Below the pieces are notes generated by a model, which searched no databases, had not been told where the DNA came from, and was given only the letters and a program-made list of their open reading frames with translations. 64,000 nt of DNA from assembly GCF_040782645.1 (NCBI RefSeq), contig NZ_CP160403.1, positions 7,537,001-7,601,000 on the forward strand, written 5' to 3'. The position numbers and the translations under genes are program-made. Below are positions 30,454 to 42,600 of this stretch, piece after piece; position 1 is the first letter of the stretch, and each line of letters begins with the position of its first letter. This DNA comes from Streptomyces sp. HUAS ZL42. Lineage in GTDB: Bacteria > Actinomycetota > Actinomycetes > Streptomycetales > Streptomycetaceae.

Positions 30454-30489
30454 GATCAGCCGTCGGACGTGCGCCGACGGGTGCTGATC
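30454..30489. promoter_or_regulatory. Interrupted inverted repeat between cobM and the ZIP transporter
   Basis: GATCAGC-CGTCGG (30454-30466) pairs with CCGACG-GGT-GCTGATC (30474-30489) around a seven-base loop, with one three-base bulge. It fills much of the 88-base divergent spacer. As DNA it could be a two-way operator; as RNA it would be a hairpin just before the ZIP start codon. No known metal-regulator consensus is recognised. Confidence 0.45.
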
Positions 30490-30504
30490 GGATACCAAGG
30501 GCAC

Positions 30505-31233
30505 ATGGCCGTCTTCGTCGCGCTCGGCGCGTTCCTCATGACGCTGGCCGGCGGCTGGACGGCACAGCGGGTGACCGACCGCCGCCATCTCGTCCTGGGG
30601 CTGGCCGGCGGACTGATGCTGGGCGTGGTCGGCCTGGACCTGCTGCCGGAGGCACTGGAGGTGGCGGGCACCGAGGTGTACGGCGTACCGGCCGCCCTGC
30701 TCCTGTTCGTCGCCGGCTTCCTGCTGGCCCACCTGGTGGAACGCCTGCTGGCGCACCGCCAGGCCGCGCACGGCGCCGAGGAGCGGGACGGCCGCGCTCC
30801 CCAGGTGGGCCTCACGGCGGCGGCCGCGATGGTCGGCCACAGCGCGATGGACGGCGTGGCGATCGGCGCGGCCTTCCAGGTCGGCGGCGGCATGGGAGTG
30901 GCCGTCGCACTGGCGGTCATCGCCCACGACTTCGCGGACGGTTTCAACACGTACACGATCACGAGCCTGTACGGGAACGCCCGTCGCAGGGCGCTCGCCA
31001 TGCTCTTCGCGGACGCGGCGGCACCGGTCGTCGGCGCGGCCTCGACCACGTTCGTCACCATCCCGGAGGGACTGCTCGGCGGCTACCTGGGCCTCTTCGG
31101 CGGCGCACTGCTGTACCTGGCGGCCGCCGAGATTCTCCCCGAGGCCCACCACGAGCACCCCGCCCGCTCGACGCTGCTGTGCACGATCGCGGGGGCGGCG
31201 TTCATCTGGCTGGTGGTGGGTCTGGCCGGTTGA
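30505..31233 (+). CDS. ZIP-family divalent metal transporter
   Basis: 242 residues with about eight transmembrane helices and a His-containing cytoplasmic loop (RLLAHRQAAHGAEERDGR). The ZIP metal-binding core is clear: VGHSAMDGVAIGAAFQVGGG in helix IV and AVIAHDFADGFNTYT in helix V, where His and Asp line the path. The AAAEILPEAHHEHP segment is a further metal site. It sits inside the cobalamin cluster, divergent from cobM and convergent with cobI, so cobalt import for corrin synthesis is an attractive role. Zinc is the default family substrate. Confidence 0.88.
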   Translation: MAVFVALGAFLMTLAGGWTAQRVTDRRHLVLGLAGGLMLGVVGLDLLPEALEVAGTEVYGVPAALLLFVAGFLLAHLVERLLAHRQAAHGAEERDGRAPQVGLTAAAAMVGHSAMDGVAIGAAFQVGGGMGVAVALAVIAHDFADGFNTYTITSLYGNARRRALAMLFADAAAPVVGAASTTFVTIPEGLLGGYLGLFGGALLYLAAAEILPEAHHEHPARSTLLCTIAGAAFIWLVVGLAG

Positions 31234-31244
31234 TCCGAGGACCG

Positions 31245-31976
31245 TCACAGCTTGCCGCCCCGCCCGCCGTCGCGCCGCGCGGGCGCGATGAGCGTGGAGA
31301 GGTACGGCAGGGGAGCACCGTCGAGATCGGCGGCCGGCCGGATGGACTCCCCGGGCAGCCCGAGGGAAGCCCCCCACACGGCGTCGTCGATCCGCCCGGT
31401 CTCCCGCAACGCCTCGGCGACCTCGCCCGCCTGCCGCCCGAACTTGTAGGCGACGACGGTCCCGGGCCCGGCCAGCGCGTCCTTGAGCACGGACGCCCCC
31501 GCGGTCACGGGCACGAGCGTGAGCGGCTCGGTCCCCTCCGTCAGCACGGCCCCCGACCGCGCCGCGAGATCCTGCATGGCGGTGATCCCGGGCACGGTCT
31601 CGACCACGACACCCGGCACCAGCTCGCCGATGGTCTGCGCGAGATAGGTGAACGTCGAGTACACGTTGGGGTCGCCGATGGTCGCGAAGGCGACGGAGCC
31701 GTGCGCCGTCAGCAACTGCGCCACCCGTTCACCGGCCGCGTCCCACGCCGCCTCCCGCCGCGCCCGGTCCGTCCGCTCGTTGAGCGCGAACACGACCCGC
31801 ACGACCTTGTCCTCGGGCACGTAGTGCACAACGGTCGCCTCGGCCCGCCCCTGTTCCCCCGTGTCCATCACGGGTACGACGACGACGTCGGCGGCACGCA
31901 GCGCGTTGACGCCCTTGACGGTCACCAGCTCCGGATCCCCGGGCCCGACCCCGACTCCGACCAGCCTGCTGCTCAT
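31245..31976 (-). CDS. cobI: Precorrin-2 C20-methyltransferase
   Basis: SAM-dependent methyltransferase making precorrin-3A, 243 residues from the ATG at 31976. Motifs: LVGVGVGPGDPELVTVKGVN at the start, VAFATIGDPNVYSTFTYLAQ, VETVPGITAMQDLAARSG and VAYKFGRQAGEVAEAL. The start overlaps the cobB stop by four bases. Last gene of the cobD operon and convergent with the ZIP transporter 11 bases away. Confidence 0.95.
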   Translation of the reverse strand: MSSRLVGVGVGPGDPELVTVKGVNALRAADVVVVPVMDTGEQGRAEATVVHYVPEDKVVRVVFALNERTDRARREAAWDAAGERVAQLLTAHGSVAFATIGDPNVYSTFTYLAQTIGELVPGVVVETVPGITAMQDLAARSGAVLTEGTEPLTLVPVTAGASVLKDALAGPGTVVAYKFGRQAGEVAEALRETGRIDDAVWGASLGLPGESIRPAADLDGAPLPYLSTLIAPARRDGGRGGKL

Positions 31977-33439
31977 GACGTCCGGCACCTCTCCACGAAC
32001 CGACGGGCCGCACCGGGCTGCGACGCCCAGTGCGTGTGCAGATAACTCGCGTGCACGCCGCGCTGTACGAATCCCTCGACGCGCCGCTCGGGCGCCCGCA
32101 CTCCCCACGCAGGGGCCGCCCCCGAGCCCGGCTCGACGACCGTCCGGTGGAACTCGTGCCCGCGCATCCGGGTCCCGGCGACGGCGAGCACGCTGTCGCT
32201 CACGGCGACGGCGTCCCGGTACCCGAGGGTGAGCCTGTCGTCCATGCGCGCGGTGGCGTCGAGCACCCCGCACATCGGCTGCCCGTCCAGCTCCCGGCAC
32301 AGATAGAGCAGCCCGGCACACTCGGCGGCGACGGGAGCGCCGCGCTCCGCGAGGGCGGCGACGGACTTGCGCAGGGGTTCGTTGGCGGACAACTCGGCGG
32401 CGTACACCTCGGGGAAACCACCACCGATGACCAACCCGCCGGTATCGTCGGGCAGTTGCTCGTCACGCAGGGGGTCGAAGAGGACGACCTCGGCACCCGC
32501 GGCGGTGAGGAGCTCGGTGTGCTCGGCATAGGAGAAGGTGAAAGCGGGACCACCCGCGACGGCGACCTTCACCTTGGAGCCCAGGTCGGTGAATCTCAGC
32601 CCGTCCGGCGTTTGAGGACGAGGCCGTTCAGGCCGAAAGCGGGGGTCTGGGGGCGCAGCCCCCAGGGACGGGAAGGGAAGGGGCGGAGGGGGCGACCCAG
32701 CCACGGCCTCAGCCGGATCCCAAGCCGCACCCGACAAGGCACCGGCACTCCGCGCAAGACCAAGCAGCGCTTCGAGATCGCACCCCGCGCTCACCTGCGC
32801 CGCCATCGCGGCGACAGCCTCAACCGCCTCGACCCGCCGCTCGGCGACCGGCACCAACCCCAGATGCCGCGAAGGCGTATCCACCTGAGCCACCCTCCGC
32901 AGCACACCCAACACCGGCACCCCAGCCGAGTCCAACGCCTCCCGCAGCAATCCCTCATGCCGATCCGACGCGACCTTGTTCAGAATCACGCCCCCGACCC
33001 GCACCTCCGGATCCCACGAGGCGAACCCGTGCACCAGCGCAGCCACCGACCGCGACTGCGACGACGCGTCCACGACGAGCACAACCGGCGCCCGCAGCAG
33101 CTTCGCCACATGGGCGGTGGACGCCAGTTCACCCTCCCCCGCGGCCCCGTCGTACATCCCCATGACACCCTCGACGACGGCGACGTCGCACCCGAGGGCC
33201 CCGTGCAGGAACAACGGAGCGACCAGCTCCGGACCGCACAGATAGGCATCGAGGTTCCGCCCCACCCGCCCGCTCGCGAGCGCGTGATACCCCGGGTCGA
33301 TGTAATCCGGCCCGACCTTGTGCGGGGACACGGCGAGCCCCCGCGCGGCGAACGCGGCCATCAGCCCCGTGGCAACGGTGGTCTTGCCGCTGCCCGAAGC
33401 AGGCGCGGCAACGACCAACCGGGGGACAGCAGTCACCAC
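31973..33439 (-). CDS. cobB: Hydrogenobyrinic/cobyrinic acid a,c-diamide synthase with in-frame repeat insertion
   Basis: ATP- and glutamine-dependent amidation of the a and c side chains. 488 residues. The N-terminal ATPase has Walker A ASGSGKTT, KVGPDYIDPGYH, VEGVMGMYDG and the switch region. The C-terminal glutamine amidotransferase has FSYAEHTELLTAAGAEVVLF, GGGFPEVYAAEL and the catalytic Cys in AAECAGLLYLC. Between them, residues about 248-281 form a Pro/Arg-rich stretch (SPPPPLPFPSLG and QTPDGL) encoded by a palindromic repeat normally found between genes. The frame is intact, so the enzyme probably still works with a longer linker. Overlaps cobO and cobI. Confidence 0.94.
   Translation of the reverse strand: MVTAVPRLVVAAPASGSGKTTVATGLMAAFAARGLAVSPHKVGPDYIDPGYHALASGRVGRNLDAYLCGPELVAPLFLHGALGCDVAVVEGVMGMYDGAAGEGELASTAHVAKLLRAPVVLVVDASSQSRSVAALVHGFASWDPEVRVGGVILNKVASDRHEGLLREALDSAGVPVLGVLRRVAQVDTPSRHLGLVPVAERRVEAVEAVAAMAAQVSAGCDLEALLGLARSAGALSGAAWDPAEAVAGSPPPPLPFPSLGAAPPDPRFRPERPRPQTPDGLRFTDLGSKVKVAVAGGPAFTFSYAEHTELLTAAGAEVVLFDPLRDEQLPDDTGGLVIGGGFPEVYAAELSANEPLRKSVAALAERGAPVAAECAGLLYLCRELDGQPMCGVLDATARMDDRLTLGYRDAVAVSDSVLAVAGTRMRGHEFHRTVVEPGSGAAPAWGVRAPERRVEGFVQRGVHASYLHTHWASQPGAARRFVERCRTS
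32596..32695. repeat. Streptomyces-type palindromic repeat inserted in frame in cobB
   Basis: About 100 bases containing GTCCGGCGTTTGAGGACGAG, then a C/T-rich tail on the minus strand and a perfect 8-bp hairpin CTGGGGGC-GCA-GCCCCCAG at 32647-32665. From memory, this arrangement is a common dispersed element between Streptomyces genes. Here it lies wholly inside cobB, contributes about 34 codons without a stop and separates the two enzyme domains. Confidence 0.75.
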
Positions 33440-34032
33440 TCGATGCCCCTCTGGCCCTTCTGGCCGACGTCCATCGGATGCTTGACCTTCGACATGTCCG
33501 TGACCAGATCGGCGAAGTCGACCAGCTTCTCGGGCGCGTTCCGCCCGGTGATCACGACATGCTGGGTCCCCGGCCGGTTCCGCAGTACGTCGACGACCTC
33601 ATCGGTGTCGACCCATCCCCAGTGCATCGGGTAGGCGAACTCGTCGAGCACGTACAACTGGTACGTCTCGGCGGCCAGGTCCCGCTTGACCTGCTCCCAC
33701 CCCTCGCGGGCCTTGTCCTCATTGTCCATCTGGGCGTCGCGCTGCACCCACGACCAGCCCTCACCCATCTTGTGCCAGGCGACGGACCCGCCCTCGCCGG
33801 AGTCCCCGAGCACGCGCAGCGCCCGCTCCTCGCCGACCTTCCACTTCGCCGACTTGACGAACTGGAACACCCCGATCGGCCACCCCTGGTTCCAGGCGCG
33901 CAGCGCGAGCCCGAAGGCGGCGGTCGACTTGCCCTTGCCGACCCCGGTGTGCACGACGACGAGCGGCCGATTACGGCGCTGACGCGTCGTCAGTCCGTCG
34001 TCCGGAATCACGCTCGGCTGTCCCTGAGGCAT
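33433..34032 (-). CDS. cobO: Cob(I)yrinic acid a,c-diamide adenosyltransferase
   Basis: Transfers the adenosyl group from ATP to Co(I) corrinoids. 199 residues, CobA/CobO/BtuR type. Walker A is HTGVGKGKST, followed by AAFGLALRAWNQGWPIGVFQ, the VLDEFAYPMHWGWVD region and ITGRNAPEKLVDFADLVTDM. The start overlaps the chelatase stop by one base (TAATG) and the 3' end overlaps cobB by seven bases. The corrinoid operon context distinguishes it from unrelated PduO-type enzymes. Confidence 0.96.
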   Translation of the reverse strand: MPQGQPSVIPDDGLTTRQRRNRPLVVVHTGVGKGKSTAAFGLALRAWNQGWPIGVFQFVKSAKWKVGEERALRVLGDSGEGGSVAWHKMGEGWSWVQRDAQMDNEDKAREGWEQVKRDLAAETYQLYVLDEFAYPMHWGWVDTDEVVDVLRNRPGTQHVVITGRNAPEKLVDFADLVTDMSKVKHPMDVGQKGQRGIEW

Positions 34033-36097
34033 TACGCGGCCCTCCTGTCGCCCTGAACTTCCCTGACCAGCCCGGCGATCGAGTCCGCCCGCAGCTCGTC
34101 CAACGTCACAGCCGTACCGCCCAGCTCACCCGCGAGCTGCCCGGCCAGCCCCAGCCGCACGGGCCCCGACTCGCAGTCCACGACCACGGACGCGACGCCC
34201 TCGGCCGCGAACAGCCGCGCCGCCCGCCCGGCGAGGGCGACCGGCTCCGTCCCACCCGTCGCCCGACCACCACCCCGGCCGGAGGCTCCCCCAGAGCCGA
34301 AAGCCTGGGGGGACCCCCATCGCGCCACCCCTCCATCTGTGGCCCGCCCGTCCGTGACGACCACGACGAGCGCCCGCCGCGCCGGATCCCGCAGCCGCTC
34401 GACCCGGAGCACGTCATGCGCCCGCAGCAGCCCGGCCGCCAGCGGCGTACGCCCCCCGGTCGGCAGCGACTCCAGCCGGGCGGCCGCCGCGTCGACCGAC
34501 GAGGTGGGCGGCAGCACGACCTCGGCGGCCGACCCGCGAAATGTCACGAGCCCCACCTTGTCCCGCCGCTGATACGCGTCAAGGAGCAGCGACAGCACAG
34601 CACCCTTCACCGCACTCATCCGCTGCCGCGCCGCCATCGACCCCGAGGCGTCCACCACGAACAGCACGAGGTTGCCCTCGCGCCCCTCCCGGGTCGCCTG
34701 CCGCAGATCGTCCCGGCGCACCACGAGCCCCGGCCCCGACCTTCCCCGCGCGCGCTGATGCGGCGCCGCCGCCTGCACGGTCGCCGCCAGGTGCAGCTTG
34801 GTGAGCGTCCCGCGGGGCCGCCGGGCCCCGGTCGTCCGCCCGTGCTCGGTCCGCGCCCGCGAACGCCGCCCGGCGGCACCCTCACCGATCCCGGGCACGC
34901 TCAGCACCTTGGTGCGGAACGGCTCGGCGGCCCGTACGGCGGACTGCTCCCCGGAGCCCGATGCCTGCGGCTCGCCGCCGTCACCCGCCTCCGGGCGGGC
35001 GCCCGTGTCACCGCCTCGCGGACCGGCATCCGGGGTCGGCTGCCCGCCGCCCCCGCCCGGTCCGCCGTCGTCCGGATCGGGATCGTCGTCGCCGGAGAAC
35101 TCCTCCAGCGTCTCGTCGAGCTTGTCCTCGTCGAGGCCCGGCGCGTCGAAGGGGTTCCTGCGCCGCCGGTGCGGCAGCGCGAGCAGCGCGGCCTGCCGTA
35201 CGTCCTCGGCGAGTACGTCGGTCCGCCCGGCCCACGCGGCCAGCGCGGTCGCCGTACGCGCCATCACGATGTCGGCGCGCATGCCGTCCACCTCGAAGGC
35301 GGCACAGGTCGCCGCGATCTGCCGCAGCGCCCCGTCGCCCAGCCGCACGGACGGCAGCAGCTCGCGCGCCGCCACGATCCGCGCCCGTACGGCGGCCTCC
35401 TCGGCCGCCCAGCGCGCGGCGAAACCGGCCGGGTCGTCGTCGTAGGCGAGCCGCCGCCGGACGACCTCGACCCGCTGGTCGGGCTCCCGCGAGGCCGCGA
35501 CCTCGACGGTCAGCCCGAACCGGTCGAGCAACTGCGGGCGCAGCTCGCCCTCTTCGGGGTTCATGGTTCCGACGAGCAGGAAGCGCGCGGCATGCCGTAC
35601 GGAGACCCCCTCGCGTTCTACGTACGAGGCGCCCATCGCGGCCGCGTCGAGGAGCAGGTCGACCAGGTGGTCGTGGAGGAGGTTGACCTCGTCGACGTAC
35701 AGGATCCCGCGGTGCGCGTCGGCGAGCAGGCCCGGCTCGAAGGCCTTCACGCCCTCGGCGAGGGCCCGCTCGATGTCGAGGGCGCCGACGAGCCGGTCCT
35801 CGGAGGCACCGACGGGGAGTTCGACCATGCGGGCCGGACGCCTGCCGCCGTTGCCGGCCTCGTGCGGCCCGTCCGGGCACGCCGGGTCGGGCGCGGCCGG
35901 GTCGCACGAGAAACGGCACCCGGCGACGACGTCCACCTCCGGCAGCAGCGCCGAAAGGGCGCGTACGGCCGTCGACTTCGCGGTGCCCTTCTCCCCGCGC
36001 ACCAGCACGCCGCCGACCGCCGGGGACACGGCGTTCAGCAGCAGCGCGAGCCGCAGGTCGTCCTGGCCGACGACGGCCGTGAACGGGAACGGGGTGG

Positions 36098-36101
<4 letters not shown>
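34032..36101 (-). CDS. Cobaltochelatase-associated AAA/VWA protein (ChlI-ChlD fusion type)
   Basis: 689 residues from the GTG at 36101. The N-terminal AAA+ domain has Walker A GEKGTAKS (36-43), Walker B ILYVDEVNLL and a sensor region MNPEEGELRPQLLDRFGL. An acidic Pro/Gly linker follows, then a VWA domain with the MIDAS motif VVDASGSM near residue 484. It would power cobalt insertion by CobN in place of CobS/CobT. Residues about 594-610 (WGSPQAFGSGGASG) come from a palindromic repeat inserted in frame in the VWA domain after VVVTDGRATDGG. Overlaps cobN by four bases and cobO by one. Confidence 0.9.
34272..34320. repeat. Streptomyces-type palindromic repeat inserted in frame in the chelatase gene
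   Basis: GGAGGCTCCCCCAGAGCCGA and AAGCCTGGGGGGACCCCCAT, end to end (34281-34320), form a hairpin with a CCCCCAG/CTGGGGG core. From memory this is a common dispersed Streptomyces element. Here it is inside the VWA domain and adds about 16-20 residues. The peptide GRAT occurs on both sides (GRATDGG and GRATGGTE), as if the site had been duplicated. Confidence 0.65.
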
Positions 36102-39744
<3,643 letters not shown>

Positions 39745-39748
<4 letters not shown>

Positions 39749-41280
39749 GCGGGCGCTCCCGGTGGAATGAAAGGCAGTCCTTGCGGCGCGCCGGACTCGA
39801 TGAGCCGCCACAGCGCGTCCGTGTCCGCGTGCTGTTCGATCAGGTCGCCGAGCCGGTCGAGCTGCTCCTCGCGCAGCGCGGCGAAAGAGGTGTCGGCGGC
39901 AGGCACGAAACGGCGGCCCGCGGCGGCCGCCACCTCGCGCAGGAAGGCGCGCCGGAAACCGTCCGACTCCAGCGAGCCGTGCCAGTGCGTGCCCCAGGTC
40001 TGGCCGACGCGGCAGCCGTCGAGGCTGTGTCCGATGTCATCGGAGATGAACGCGGTGCCGCCGTCGATCTCCGCGACCCCGTGATGGATCTCGTACCCCT
40101 CGACCCGCTCGCCGAGGGCCTCGCCGACGGGCCGGGTGAGGGTCTTCTCGCGGGCGAACCGCACCCGCACGGGGAGGACACCGAGTCCGTCCACATGTCC
40201 TCGCCGGCTCTCGACCTCGTCCTCGATGTGCTCGCCGAGGACCTGGAAGCCACCGCAGATGCCGAGGACGGGTCGTCCCTCGGCGCCCCTGCGCTTGATG
40301 GCCTCCGCAAGTCCCCGCTCCCGCAGCCACTCCAGCGCGCGTACGGTCCCCCGGGTCCCCGGGATCACTACGAGGTCGGCGTCGGCAAGCTCCTCCGGCC
40401 GGTCCACGAACCGCACGACGACACCGGGTTCGGCGGCCAGCGCGTCGACATCCGTGAAGTTGGACATCAGCGGGATCGCACACACGGCGACACGGAGCAC
40501 GTCCTCGCCGACGGGCGGGGCGACGTTCGACTCCCGGACCGTCCCGCGCAGGGAGACCCGCAGCCCGTCCTCCTCGTCGATGCCGAGGCCGTGGCGGAAG
40601 GGCAGGACGCCGTACGTCTGCCGTCCCGTGAGCCCGTGCAGCATGTCGAGTCCGGGTTCCAGCAGAGAGACATCCCCCCGGAACTTGTTGACGAGGAACC
40701 CGGCGACGAACTCCTGGTCCTCGGGAGACAGCAGGGCGACGGTCCCGAAGAAGGAGGCGAAGACGCCGCCCCGGTCGATGTCGCCGACGACGAGCACGGG
40801 AAGCCGGGCGTTGCGCGCGATCCCCATGTTCACGATGTCGGTGCGCCGCAGATTGATCTCGGCAGGACTGCCGGCACCCTCACAGATCACCGCGTCATAC
40901 GTGCCCCGCAACTCGGCGAGGCAGTCCAGCACCGTCCCCAGAAGCTTCTGTTGCCGCCCGCCGTGATATCCCCGCGCGCTCAGCTCACCGACTGGCTTCC
41001 CCAGCAGCACGACCTGACTGCTCTGCTCGCCACCGGGCTTGAGCAGCACGGGGTTCATCAACGCGGTCGGCTCGACGCGGCACGCCTGGGCCTGCATGGC
41101 CTGCGCCCGCCCGATCTCGGCGCCCTCCCGTGTCACGAACGAGTTGAGGGACATGTTCTGCGCCTTGAAGGGCGCGACCTTGACACCCTGCCGCACCAGC
41201 CAACGGCAGATCCCGGCGGTGACGACACTCTTGCCGGCGTCGGAGGTGGTACCGGCGACGAGAAGACCCCCGCCGGTCAT
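39745..41280 (-). CDS. cobQ: Cobyric acid synthase
   Basis: Amidates the b, d, e and g side chains of adenosylcobyrinate diamide using glutamine and ATP. 511 residues from the ATG at 41280. The N-terminal dethiobiotin-synthetase-like domain contains VAGTTSDAGKSVVTAG and APFKAQNMSLNSFVT, with ICEGAGSPAEINLR. The C-terminal amidotransferase contains VIPGTRGTVRALEWL, the catalytic Cys in LGICGGFQVLG and the His in GTHWHGSLE. Overlaps cobD and cobN by four bases. Confidence 0.96.
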
Positions 41281-42293
41281 GAGAGGCCCCCCAACTGCTG
41301 TGGGCAGTCGTTCCGCAAGGCGGAACTGGTGGGCACAGCCTGCAGCGCCGGGCGCCTCGCAACCCGCCCCCGCAGCAGCGCACCCGCAGCAGTGACCCCC
41401 CACGCGAGCCAGCCAACCCGCCGCGACAACCGAACAGCCCTCTCGATGTCCCCCACTTGCACAGAACGCCCCTCCCCGTTCAGCACAGGCCGATGCTCCA
41501 CGCGCCCCCCATACGCCAACGTCCCCCCGAGCCGTACCCCGAGCGCCCCCGCGAACGACGCCTCCACAGGCCCGGCATTAGGACTCGGATGCTTCACCGC
41601 ATCGGCACGCCAGGCGCGTGCCGCCCCGCGGGGATCACCTCCGGCGACCGCCGCCAGTGCGGCGGTCAGCCGGGCGCCGGGCCATCCGGCAACATCGTCC
41701 AGCCGCGCGGAGGCCCACCCGAACCTCCGGTACCTGGCCGACTTGTGACCGACCATCGCGTCGAGGGTGTTCACCGCCCGGAAGCCGACCAGGCCCGGCA
41801 CTCCGCCCACCGCCCCCCACACCAGCGCCCCCACCACCGCGTCCGACGTGTTCTCTGCGACGGACTCCACAACCGCGCGGGCGATCCCGTCGGCGTCCAG
41901 GGCCTGGGGATCCCGCCCGCAGAGGTGGGGCAGCCGGGCGCGGGCACCCTCGATGTCCCCGGCCTCCAGCGCACGCCCGATGCCCCGGGCCTCGCGCGCG
42001 AGTGAAGTCCCCCCGACGACGGCCCAGGCGGCGGCGCCGGTGAGCGCGACAAAAGCGGCAGGGGACGTACGGACGGCACGGGCGGCGACGGCGCCGAGGG
42101 CGACGGCGCCACCGGCGCACACAACGGCGTGCAGCGCGCCCCACCCCCGGTGGTCCCGCCACAGCACGCGCTCCACGGCACCCGCGGCCCGCCCGAACGC
42201 GGCGACCGGGTGTCCGCGGCGAGGATCGCCGAGGAGCAGGTCACCGAGGAGGCCGGCGGCGGCGCCGTACGCGAAGACGCGATCGGCACGCAT
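41277..42293 (-). CDS. cobD: Adenosylcobinamide-phosphate synthase (CobD/CbiB)
   Basis: Membrane enzyme attaching the aminopropanol (phosphate) arm to adenosylcobyric acid. 338 residues. Motifs: GDLLLGDPRRGHPVAAFGR at the N-terminus, several hydrophobic helices, AVVESVAENTSDAVVGALVW, VNTLDAMVGHKSARYRRFGW and AVKHPSPNAGPVEASFAGAL. First gene of the operon controlled by the cobalamin riboswitch. The last 20 residues (VPTSSALRNDCPQQL) come from a palindromic repeat that also supplies sequence up to the cobQ start, so the C-terminus is probably extended compared with relatives. Confidence 0.94.
   Translation of the reverse strand: MRADRVFAYGAAAGLLGDLLLGDPRRGHPVAAFGRAAGAVERVLWRDHRGWGALHAVVCAGGAVALGAVAARAVRTSPAAFVALTGAAAWAVVGGTSLAREARGIGRALEAGDIEGARARLPHLCGRDPQALDADGIARAVVESVAENTSDAVVGALVWGAVGGVPGLVGFRAVNTLDAMVGHKSARYRRFGWASARLDDVAGWPGARLTAALAAVAGGDPRGAARAWRADAVKHPSPNAGPVEASFAGALGVRLGGTLAYGGRVEHRPVLNGEGRSVQVGDIERAVRLSRRVGWLAWGVTAAGALLRGRVARRPALQAVPTSSALRNDCPQQLGGLS
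41297..41339. repeat. Streptomyces-type palindromic repeat forming the cobD 3' end
   Basis: Outer arms GCTGTG/CACAGC and inner arms GTTCCGC/GCGGAAC frame an AAG loop, with the direct repeat TGGGCA present on both sides. From memory this GTGCCCACC/GTTCCGC element is widespread between Streptomyces genes. Here it lies in frame in the last codons of cobD. Confidence 0.65.
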
Positions 42294-42394: not shown

Positions 42395-42600
42395 TCGACG
42401 AGACCGGCGGTGAGAGTTCCTGGCTCCCGGGGCTTACTACCCCGGTGACAGTGGCGGGACCGCGCCGGACTCGCACCGGCTTCCTCTCCTGCCGCCGTAC
42501 ATGGCTCCGGCAGTCCACCACGGCCCTGGAAGGGCCGTCAACTTGCCGCTGACCTGCGACGGGAGAGTGTGCTGAGGCCCACACACGGGCCGTCGGTGCC
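42395..42600 (-). promoter_or_regulatory. Cobalamin riboswitch upstream of cobD
   Basis: On the minus strand the leader contains the conserved cobalamin-aptamer core: GGAAGCCGGTGCGAGTCCGG followed directly by CGCGGTCCCGCCACTGTCAC, then a GGGG...CCCC stem, then the B12 box AGCCAGGAACTCTCACCGCC near 42400-42425. These match the family consensus. Transcription runs into cobD, whose ATG is about 100 bases downstream, so high cobalamin should lower expression of the seven-gene operon. The 5' limit is approximate; a terminator of the preceding operon ends at 42611. Confidence 0.93.

What the first reader, a model, noticed from the sequence alone, without database searches (positions are those of the whole stretch)
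31973..42293. Three different palindromic repeats inserted in frame inside one cobalamin operon
Seen: cobB (32596-32695), the ChlI/ChlD chelatase gene (34272-34320) and cobD (41297-41339) each contain a hairpin-forming repeat that keeps the reading frame. Known: repeats of these shapes are, from memory, dispersed between Streptomyces genes; in-frame palindromic insertions are described in Rickettsia but rarely discussed here. Inference: the operon has tolerated repeat invasion at a domain linker, a VWA loop and a C-terminus, making new protein segments. Three unrelated repeat classes in one operon suggest a tolerant hot spot or a shared insertion mechanism.
Basis: partly seen in the sequence, partly recalled or inferred. 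Interest (0 to 1): 0.78.

Follow-up and report, generated by a model that had tools for sequence, protein, structure and literature searches.

The report
Palindromic repeats inside Streptomyces cobalamin genes
Three short hairpin-forming repeats that are scattered through Streptomyces genomes lie inside vitamin B12 genes without breaking them, and one of the three turns out to have added nearly the same 14-amino-acid peptide to many unrelated Streptomyces proteins.

Summary
In this Streptomyces genome cobB, chlID and cobD each carry a different dispersed palindrome (A, B, C) read in frame; orthologues without them show that they are additions.
A is REP-like: 26 of 27 copies are intergenic and cobB holds the one coding copy; 28 of 75 species carry it in the cobB linker.
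C (cobD tail) is mostly intergenic (17 of 21 copies examined) and often has B nested in it (12 of 21).
B is the real find: a palindrome of 24-45 bp, canonical 42 bp. In this genome 14 of 41 sites were called genic; eight of those encode LPHSRLRSSGGTPI or a near form, and that peptide, with at most 2 mismatches, is in all 52 proteins a search returned, from about 30 families. Orthologous empty sites mostly have 6 bp where B stands, net +36 bp for the 42-bp form, with no target duplication.
An operon-wide hot spot is not supported in relatives; the cobB linker, though, is a recurrent landing pad.
In-frame palindromes are a known kind (Rickettsia RPE, coding REPs). This family, its six-bp swap and its frame bias I did not find in print in the searches named. 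The mobilising enzyme is unknown.

The parts
31973..33439 (-). cobB; repeat A is translated in the linker between the CbiA and GATase_3 domains
   Evidence: Pfam CbiA residues 8-193 and GATase_3 291-474; linker comparison
32597..32695 (.). Repeat A, about 100 bp, REP-like, translated as SPPPPLPFPSLGAAPPDPRFRPERPRPQTPDGL
   Evidence: 27 matches in this genome, 26 intergenic; in 85 of 121 genus genomes
34032..36101 (-). chlID (ChlI/ChlD-like chelatase)
   Evidence: AAA_lid_2, Mg_chelatase, VWA_2 matches
34257..34337 (-). 81-bp (27-aa) in-frame insert after TDGRAT; contains B; edges uncertain because GRAT is repeated at both ends
   Evidence: absent in 72 of 75 readable sequences, shared with L038, 17-aa form without the hairpin in L013
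34286..34321 (.). Repeat B, 36-bp variant CTC...ATC
   Evidence: B family 41 sites in this genome; 6 bp at the same place in L013
41277..42293 (-). cobD; its tail is extended by repeat C; its stop overlaps the cobQ start (ATGA)
   Evidence: CobD_Cbib to residue 289; tail comparison
41297..41340 (.). Repeat C palindrome, no stop codon in six frames
   Evidence: C family context; frames
39745..41280 (-). cobQ (name recalled, not searched), start codon overlapping the cobD stop; in L007 and L051 it carries a B element
36098..39748 (-). cobN (name recalled), no A, B or C found; used as the anchor for relatives
33433..34032 (-). cobO (name recalled), no A, B or C found
42395..42534 (-). Cobalamin riboswitch upstream of cobD
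   Evidence: Rfam RF00174, 49.5 bits

Best explanation
The three segments are copies of Streptomyces dispersed palindromic repeats that landed in coding DNA and were kept because they do not break the frame. Shown: each is an addition against orthologues; each belongs to a family; A and B are found across the genus; at the sites with clear empty orthologues B mostly stands where they have 6 bp, with elements of 24, 36, 39, 42 or 45 bp, so the frame is kept; coding B copies mostly have a frame-compatible length and one reading frame prevails. Inferred: B moves as a non-autonomous palindrome, perhaps through a single-stranded or fork-associated hairpin that replaces about six bases; a copy survives inside a gene when it lands in a loop, linker or tail and gives a harmless peptide; existing tolerant inserts (the A-filled cobB linker, C in cobD, the short chlID insert) then gather further copies, so nesting builds up. 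A is a REP-like repeat that lies between genes but not between divergent ones, whose cobB copy is an old or repeatedly renewed exception.
For: Families and counts. Genus: B in 98 of 121, A in 85 of 121. Insertions against orthologues. Exactly 12 extra residues against the best solved homologue of LigD (5dmu), a bifunctional P450 (9wuc) and PhoD (2yeq). DNA empty sites: 12 bp against 48 here in 24 of 25 relatives for PhoD and 15 of 19 for LigD. With the element taken as CTC...ATC (or ATT, ATG, CAG), 6 bp in PhoD 25 of 27, cobQ 75 of 79, chlID 1 of 1, cobB/A 5 of 5 for L070, and C paralogues of the same genome 3 of 7 for each of two filled copies. Peptide in 52 of 52 returned proteins at up to 2 mismatches. 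Frame-compatible length 13 of 14 genic against 15 of 27 intergenic, p=0.015; one of six frames in 8 of 14, p=0.0007. Five other frames pooled gave 156 candidates and 7 proteins against 2041 and 52 for the main frame.
Against: No mobilising enzyme was found: the 8 regions that hold all 10 Y1 matches of this genome have no match to the B pattern, only two loose 13-mers at 2 mismatches, and 14 of 30 B-rich genomes have no Y1 match. No movement was observed. Boundaries are ambiguous because element ends and targets share bases: the replacement may be 2-6 bp. cobD/C gave 5 bp, C paralogues 6 bp in only 3 of 7, L020 in 2 of 5, the ZIP-like gene in 50 and 42 of 79; I take the rest as poor flank anchoring without having proved it. 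Genic calls come from a simple codon model trained on cob genes that needs an open frame, so a copy that broke its gene could be missed; this weakens the frame statistics. L105 and L110 are doubtful genes. Part of the conservation of A in cobB is ascertainment.
Confidence: 0.8

Rival explanations
1. Ordinary proline-rich or flexible linkers that merely resemble repeats.
For: The cobB linker and the cobD tail vary in length through the genus, and of 163 supported insertions in the loci only 4 were flagged palindromic.
Against: DNA identity to dispersed intergenic copies, clean presence/absence in orthologues, the same 14-mer in about 30 families.
Confidence: 0.03
2. The cobalamin operon is a tolerant hot spot, or a shared mechanism targeted it.
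For: Three coding copies in 10.3 kb, 0.0009 such windows expected per genome; B in cobB, cobD, cobQ and chlID of relatives.
Against: Post hoc choice; 5 hand-grouped events inside against 3 outside the operon, p=0.24; different spread of the three insertions; many other genes carry B.
Confidence: 0.12
3. The hairpins are kept as RNA elements (attenuation, RNase III sites, stability) that tune the riboswitch-controlled operon; the protein segments are side effects.
For: All three fold into hairpins; A in cobB is more conserved (90.8%) than its flanks (81-82%) in 103 of 105 pairs; none of 26 intergenic A copies lies between divergent genes.
Against: Patchy presence in chlID and cobD; folding z only -1.3 to -2.0; strong reading-frame preference of B; one search chose sequences by their match to A.
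Confidence: 0.12
4. B is moved by a Y1 (IS200/IS605 or RAYT-like) transposase.
For: Genomes with PF01797 carry more B, median 9 against 3, p=0.006; 10 matches in this genome.
Confidence: 0.15
5. The segments are skipped in translation (bypassing) or are assembly errors.
For: Translationally bypassed palindromes are reported in mitochondria of a yeast (passage in PMC6649704).
Against: The inserts keep the frame in length and recur in independent assemblies. That genic copies lack stops is no argument, since the gene calls require it.
Confidence: 0.03

Closest known systems
Rickettsia palindromic elements (RPE) and Wolbachia palindromic elements (WPE)
   Same: Palindromic DNA repeats, intergenic and in frame inside many unrelated protein genes (RPE: passages in PMC2229807; WPE: title in its reference list).
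   Different: RPE are 105-146 bp there; B is 24-45 bp. RPE target duplication is marked '?' there; B stands in place of about 6 bp. Different phylum. No sequence comparison with RPE or WPE was made.
GTAG- and CGTC-tagged REPs inside ORFs (PMC3733652, passages)
   Same: Short palindromes, some entirely inside ORFs of unrelated proteins; R. conorii RPE-6 and RPE-4 are CGTC repeats.
   Different: CGTC repeats are listed there from 5 phyla, Actinobacteria not among them, and that word does not occur in its main text. B has C-tract ends, no GTAG or CGTC tag. Repeat A holds a CGTC near one end; whether it fits a CGTC family was not tested.
Bacterial MITEs
   Same: Small, non-autonomous, hairpin-forming, sometimes fused in frame (passages in PMC2229807).
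   Different: No target-site duplication seen; much shorter.
Potential intrastrand triplex (PIT/BoxC) motifs (PMC4666352, passages)
   Same: B has two C tracts that could share one G tract, like the layout of two hairpins sharing a homopurine strand.
   Different: Triplex formation not tested; the passages seen study E. coli copies between genes.

Membership tests
Coding palindromic elements (RPE kind) | Palindromic repeat present both between and within genes | tested here: met
   B: 27 intergenic, 14 called genic
Coding palindromic elements (RPE kind) | In-frame insertion in unrelated proteins, absent from orthologues | tested here: met
Coding palindromic elements (RPE kind) | Length 105-146 bp as described for Rickettsia | tested here: not met
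   B 24-45 bp; length from PMC2229807
Coding palindromic elements (RPE kind) | Sequence relationship to RPE families | not tested
   no RPE sequence was fetched
REP/RAYT system | Association with a Y1 (RAYT) transposase flanked by the repeat | tested here: not met
   8 regions with all 10 Y1 matches of this genome, no B-pattern match; other genomes not examined for this
REP/RAYT system | GTAG tag at one end | tested here: not met
   41 aligned B copies and their flank consensus show none
REP (general), for repeat A | Extragenic location, not between divergent genes | tested here: met
   26 of 27 intergenic; 0 of 26 between divergent genes
MITE | Target-site duplication | tested here: not met
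   target bases are missing, not doubled, at the sites compared
Intrastrand triplex motif | Triplex forms in DNA | not testable with these tools
   needs NMR, CD or chemical probing

The most novel reading that the evidence does not exclude
B is a new class of mobile DNA that moves by swapping itself for about six base pairs instead of being inserted, with element lengths in multiples of three, so that a hit in a gene adds a peptide without a frameshift; one of its six readings, LPHSRLRSSGGTPI, is favoured so strongly that it acts as a genus-wide peptide cassette, tolerated or even useful in surface loops.
Probability: 0.3. Interest if true: 0.88.

Novelty: new variant of a known kind. Interest (0 to 1): 0.72.

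Why it matters
In-frame palindromic insertions were first made known (recalled) from Rickettsia and later from REPs in other bacteria; here they occur in a large, free-living, industrially important genus, in proteins such as LigD, a P450, PhoD, sigma factors and B12 enzymes. They offer many natural experiments on how folded proteins accept the same 12-residue addition, and the six-bp swap is a concrete handle on an unknown mobility mechanism. Annotators will also meet the peptide as a false signal of homology.

Tried and rejected
Strict patterns for the chlID and cobD repeats found only themselves; looser ones were needed. A Y1-transposase link was tested and not supported. An unbiased search for insertions of 21 bp or more among 81 sequences gave 163 events seen in at least two comparisons (257 in all), 122 genic, 109 of those in multiples of three, but only 4 were flagged palindromic; most length change in this region is therefore not from these repeats. 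AlphaFold of ChlID gave mean pLDDT 34.6 and was discarded, so the VWA-loop placement rests on the TDGRAT motif and alignment, and 'surface loop' for the other proteins is inference. A first script for empty sites used loose fuzzy anchors and gave nonsense for many sites; one search replaced it (one search dropped). Operon-wide hot spot: not supported in relatives. Print: searches cover an open-access library only and show capped lists; in those lists I saw no paper describing these Streptomyces repeats, and the peptide and B strings gave no paper. A groES primer in PMC5427115 resembles repeat A with one extra base (passage only).
Full report
Setting. The window lies in a 9.87-Mb, single-contig genome whose closest named matches are Streptomyces. 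cobD, cobQ, cobN, chlID, cobO and cobB run on the minus strand from 42293 to 31973, behind a cobalamin riboswitch at 42395-42534. Pfam was run for CobB, ChlID and CobD; the names cobN, cobO and cobQ are recalled.

Observation. They belong to three families, here A (cobB), B (chlID) and C (cobD).

Are they insertions? I fetched 80 named Streptomyces loci around cobN (the best 80 of 563). ChlID runs straight from TDGRAT to G in 72 of 75 readable sequences; the window and L038 have 27 extra residues there, and L013 has 17 without the hairpin (six truncated loci dropped). CobD is mostly 311-321 residues long; the window (338) and L003 (358) have a longer tail holding C, and in L003 that C is interrupted by a B. 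Eight other CobDs of 325 or more have no C by pattern, so the tail is variable anyway. Two further database CobDs, P0027 and P0038, carry B in the same tail. In CobB, 28 of 75 sequences carry A in the linker between the two domains, 34 have no trace and 13 have partial traces (six without a CobB match dropped). With a stricter pattern all 25 A hits in the 81 sequences lie in CobB. The carriers of the chlID insert are scattered on a cobN tree, and L077, nearest to L013, lacks it, which points to allele exchange, repeated gain or loss.

What the families are. A: 27 matches in this genome, 26 intergenic, none of the 26 between divergent genes, four of them in one array; 85 of 121 genus genomes have it. 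C: 21 copies by context in the regions fetched, 17 intergenic and 4 called genic (window, L090, L092, L110), 12 with B nested; 6 places were not fetched. B: 41 sites, 14 called genic, L105 and L110 doubtful; 98 of 121 genus genomes have it, 1120 pattern rows in all.

B as a coding element. Of the 14 genic copies, eight share orientation and phase and encode LPHSRLRSSGGTPI or a near form, in a P450, a LacI regulator, a LigD polymerase, an ABC transporter, a mannosyltransferase, a phytase-like protein, a GNAT and a gp25 protein; the other six are in other frames, including PhoD, an alginate lyase and the window's chlID. A search with the repeated peptide gave 52 proteins at E up to 10; all 52 hold the peptide with at most 2 mismatches. 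By source names and Pfam codes I group them into about 30 families, and every organism visible in the listing is Streptomyces; proteins from jgi and lgn sources carry no organism. Most E-values are weak because the match is 14 residues long; the peptide itself is the evidence. P0014, P0017 and P0019 hold two copies. Five other frames pooled gave 7 proteins from 156 candidates, one of them this genome's own L110 product, against 52 from 2041; the two queries differ in words and length, so the ratio is only a guide. One of the seven is a CobB with two B copies inside its A segment (P0068).

How B sits. Against the best solved homologue LigD, the P450 and PhoD show exactly 12 extra residues. Against relatives PhoD has 12 bp where this genome has 48 in 24 of 25, and LigD in 15 of 19 (loci without both flanks dropped: 3 of 28 and 2 of 21). 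With the element taken as CTC...ATC (or ATT, ATG, CAG), the empty site has 6 bp in PhoD (25 of 27), cobQ (75 of 79), chlID (1 of 1) and cobB/A for L070 (5 of 5). It has 6 bp in 3 of 7 C paralogues of this genome for each of two filled copies, 50 and 42 of 79 for a ZIP-like gene and 2 of 5 for L020, and 5 bp in cobD (1 of 1); there I suspect poor flank anchoring but did not prove it. Element lengths are 24, 36, 39, 42 and 45. No target duplication is seen. Because element ends and targets share bases, the true replacement may be 2-6 bp. The canonical 42-mer has no stop in six frames, but neither have 29% of its shuffles, so that alone proves little. Genic copies keep a frame-compatible core length (13 of 14) more often than intergenic ones (15 of 27), p=0.015; since genic calls require an open frame, this is weaker than it looks.

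Mechanism. Selection would explain the frame bias: a protein tolerates some readings better. The movement itself is open. A Y1 transposase is associated statistically but not physically. B's two C tracts around one G tract suggest a hairpin or triplex that could stall a fork and be copied by template switching; this is inference.

Hot spot. Three coding copies in one operon is nominally rare, but it was chosen post hoc, and in relatives hand-grouped B events are 5 inside against 3 outside, p=0.24. The cobB linker is the exception: A, B, a second inverted A-like copy (L006) and double B (P0068) occur there.

A in cobB is 90.8% identical between 15 chosen species against 81-82% in flanks, 103 of 105 pairs. 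The species were chosen by match to A, so part of this is bias; gene conversion from dispersed copies, fresh insertion or an RNA role could explain the rest.

Novelty. RPE, WPE and coding REPs make the kind known (passages of PMC2229807, PMC3733652, PMC6649704). The Streptomyces families, the six-bp swap and the peptide were not seen in the searches, which cover open-access papers only and list a capped number.

Noticed in passing
window 42395-42534 minus: Cobalamin riboswitch upstream of cobD, so the repeats probably sit in a B12-regulated transcript.
   Followed up: no
L004 19168-19205 and L007 18820-18863; orthologue in the window 30481-31233 plus: A ZIP-like transporter gene (name recalled) has B elements of different length (39 and 45 bp) at the same site in two species, while the window copy is empty; hints at target preference.
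   Followed up: partly
L120 1810-2163 (G000 6080510-6080862): Four copies of repeat A in a row at about 110-bp spacing in one intergenic region.
   Followed up: no
cobB linker in 15 species, window 32597-32695: The A segment is more conserved between species than the surrounding cobB DNA, although it encodes a linker; selection of species biases this.
   Followed up: partly
P0014, P0017, P0019, P0068: Single proteins holding two B-derived peptides, tandem in P0019.
   Followed up: no
PMC5427115: A published groES-promoter primer in S. ambofaciens resembles repeat A with one extra base, so it may prime at other sites (passage).
   Followed up: no
L007 and L051 cobQ: The same in-frame B at the same cobQ site in two species that are not neighbours on the cobN tree.
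   Followed up: partly
CobD tails of L013, L031, L036, L043, L068, L077, L078, L079: Long CobD C-termini without repeat C, so this tail grows by other routes too.
   Followed up: no
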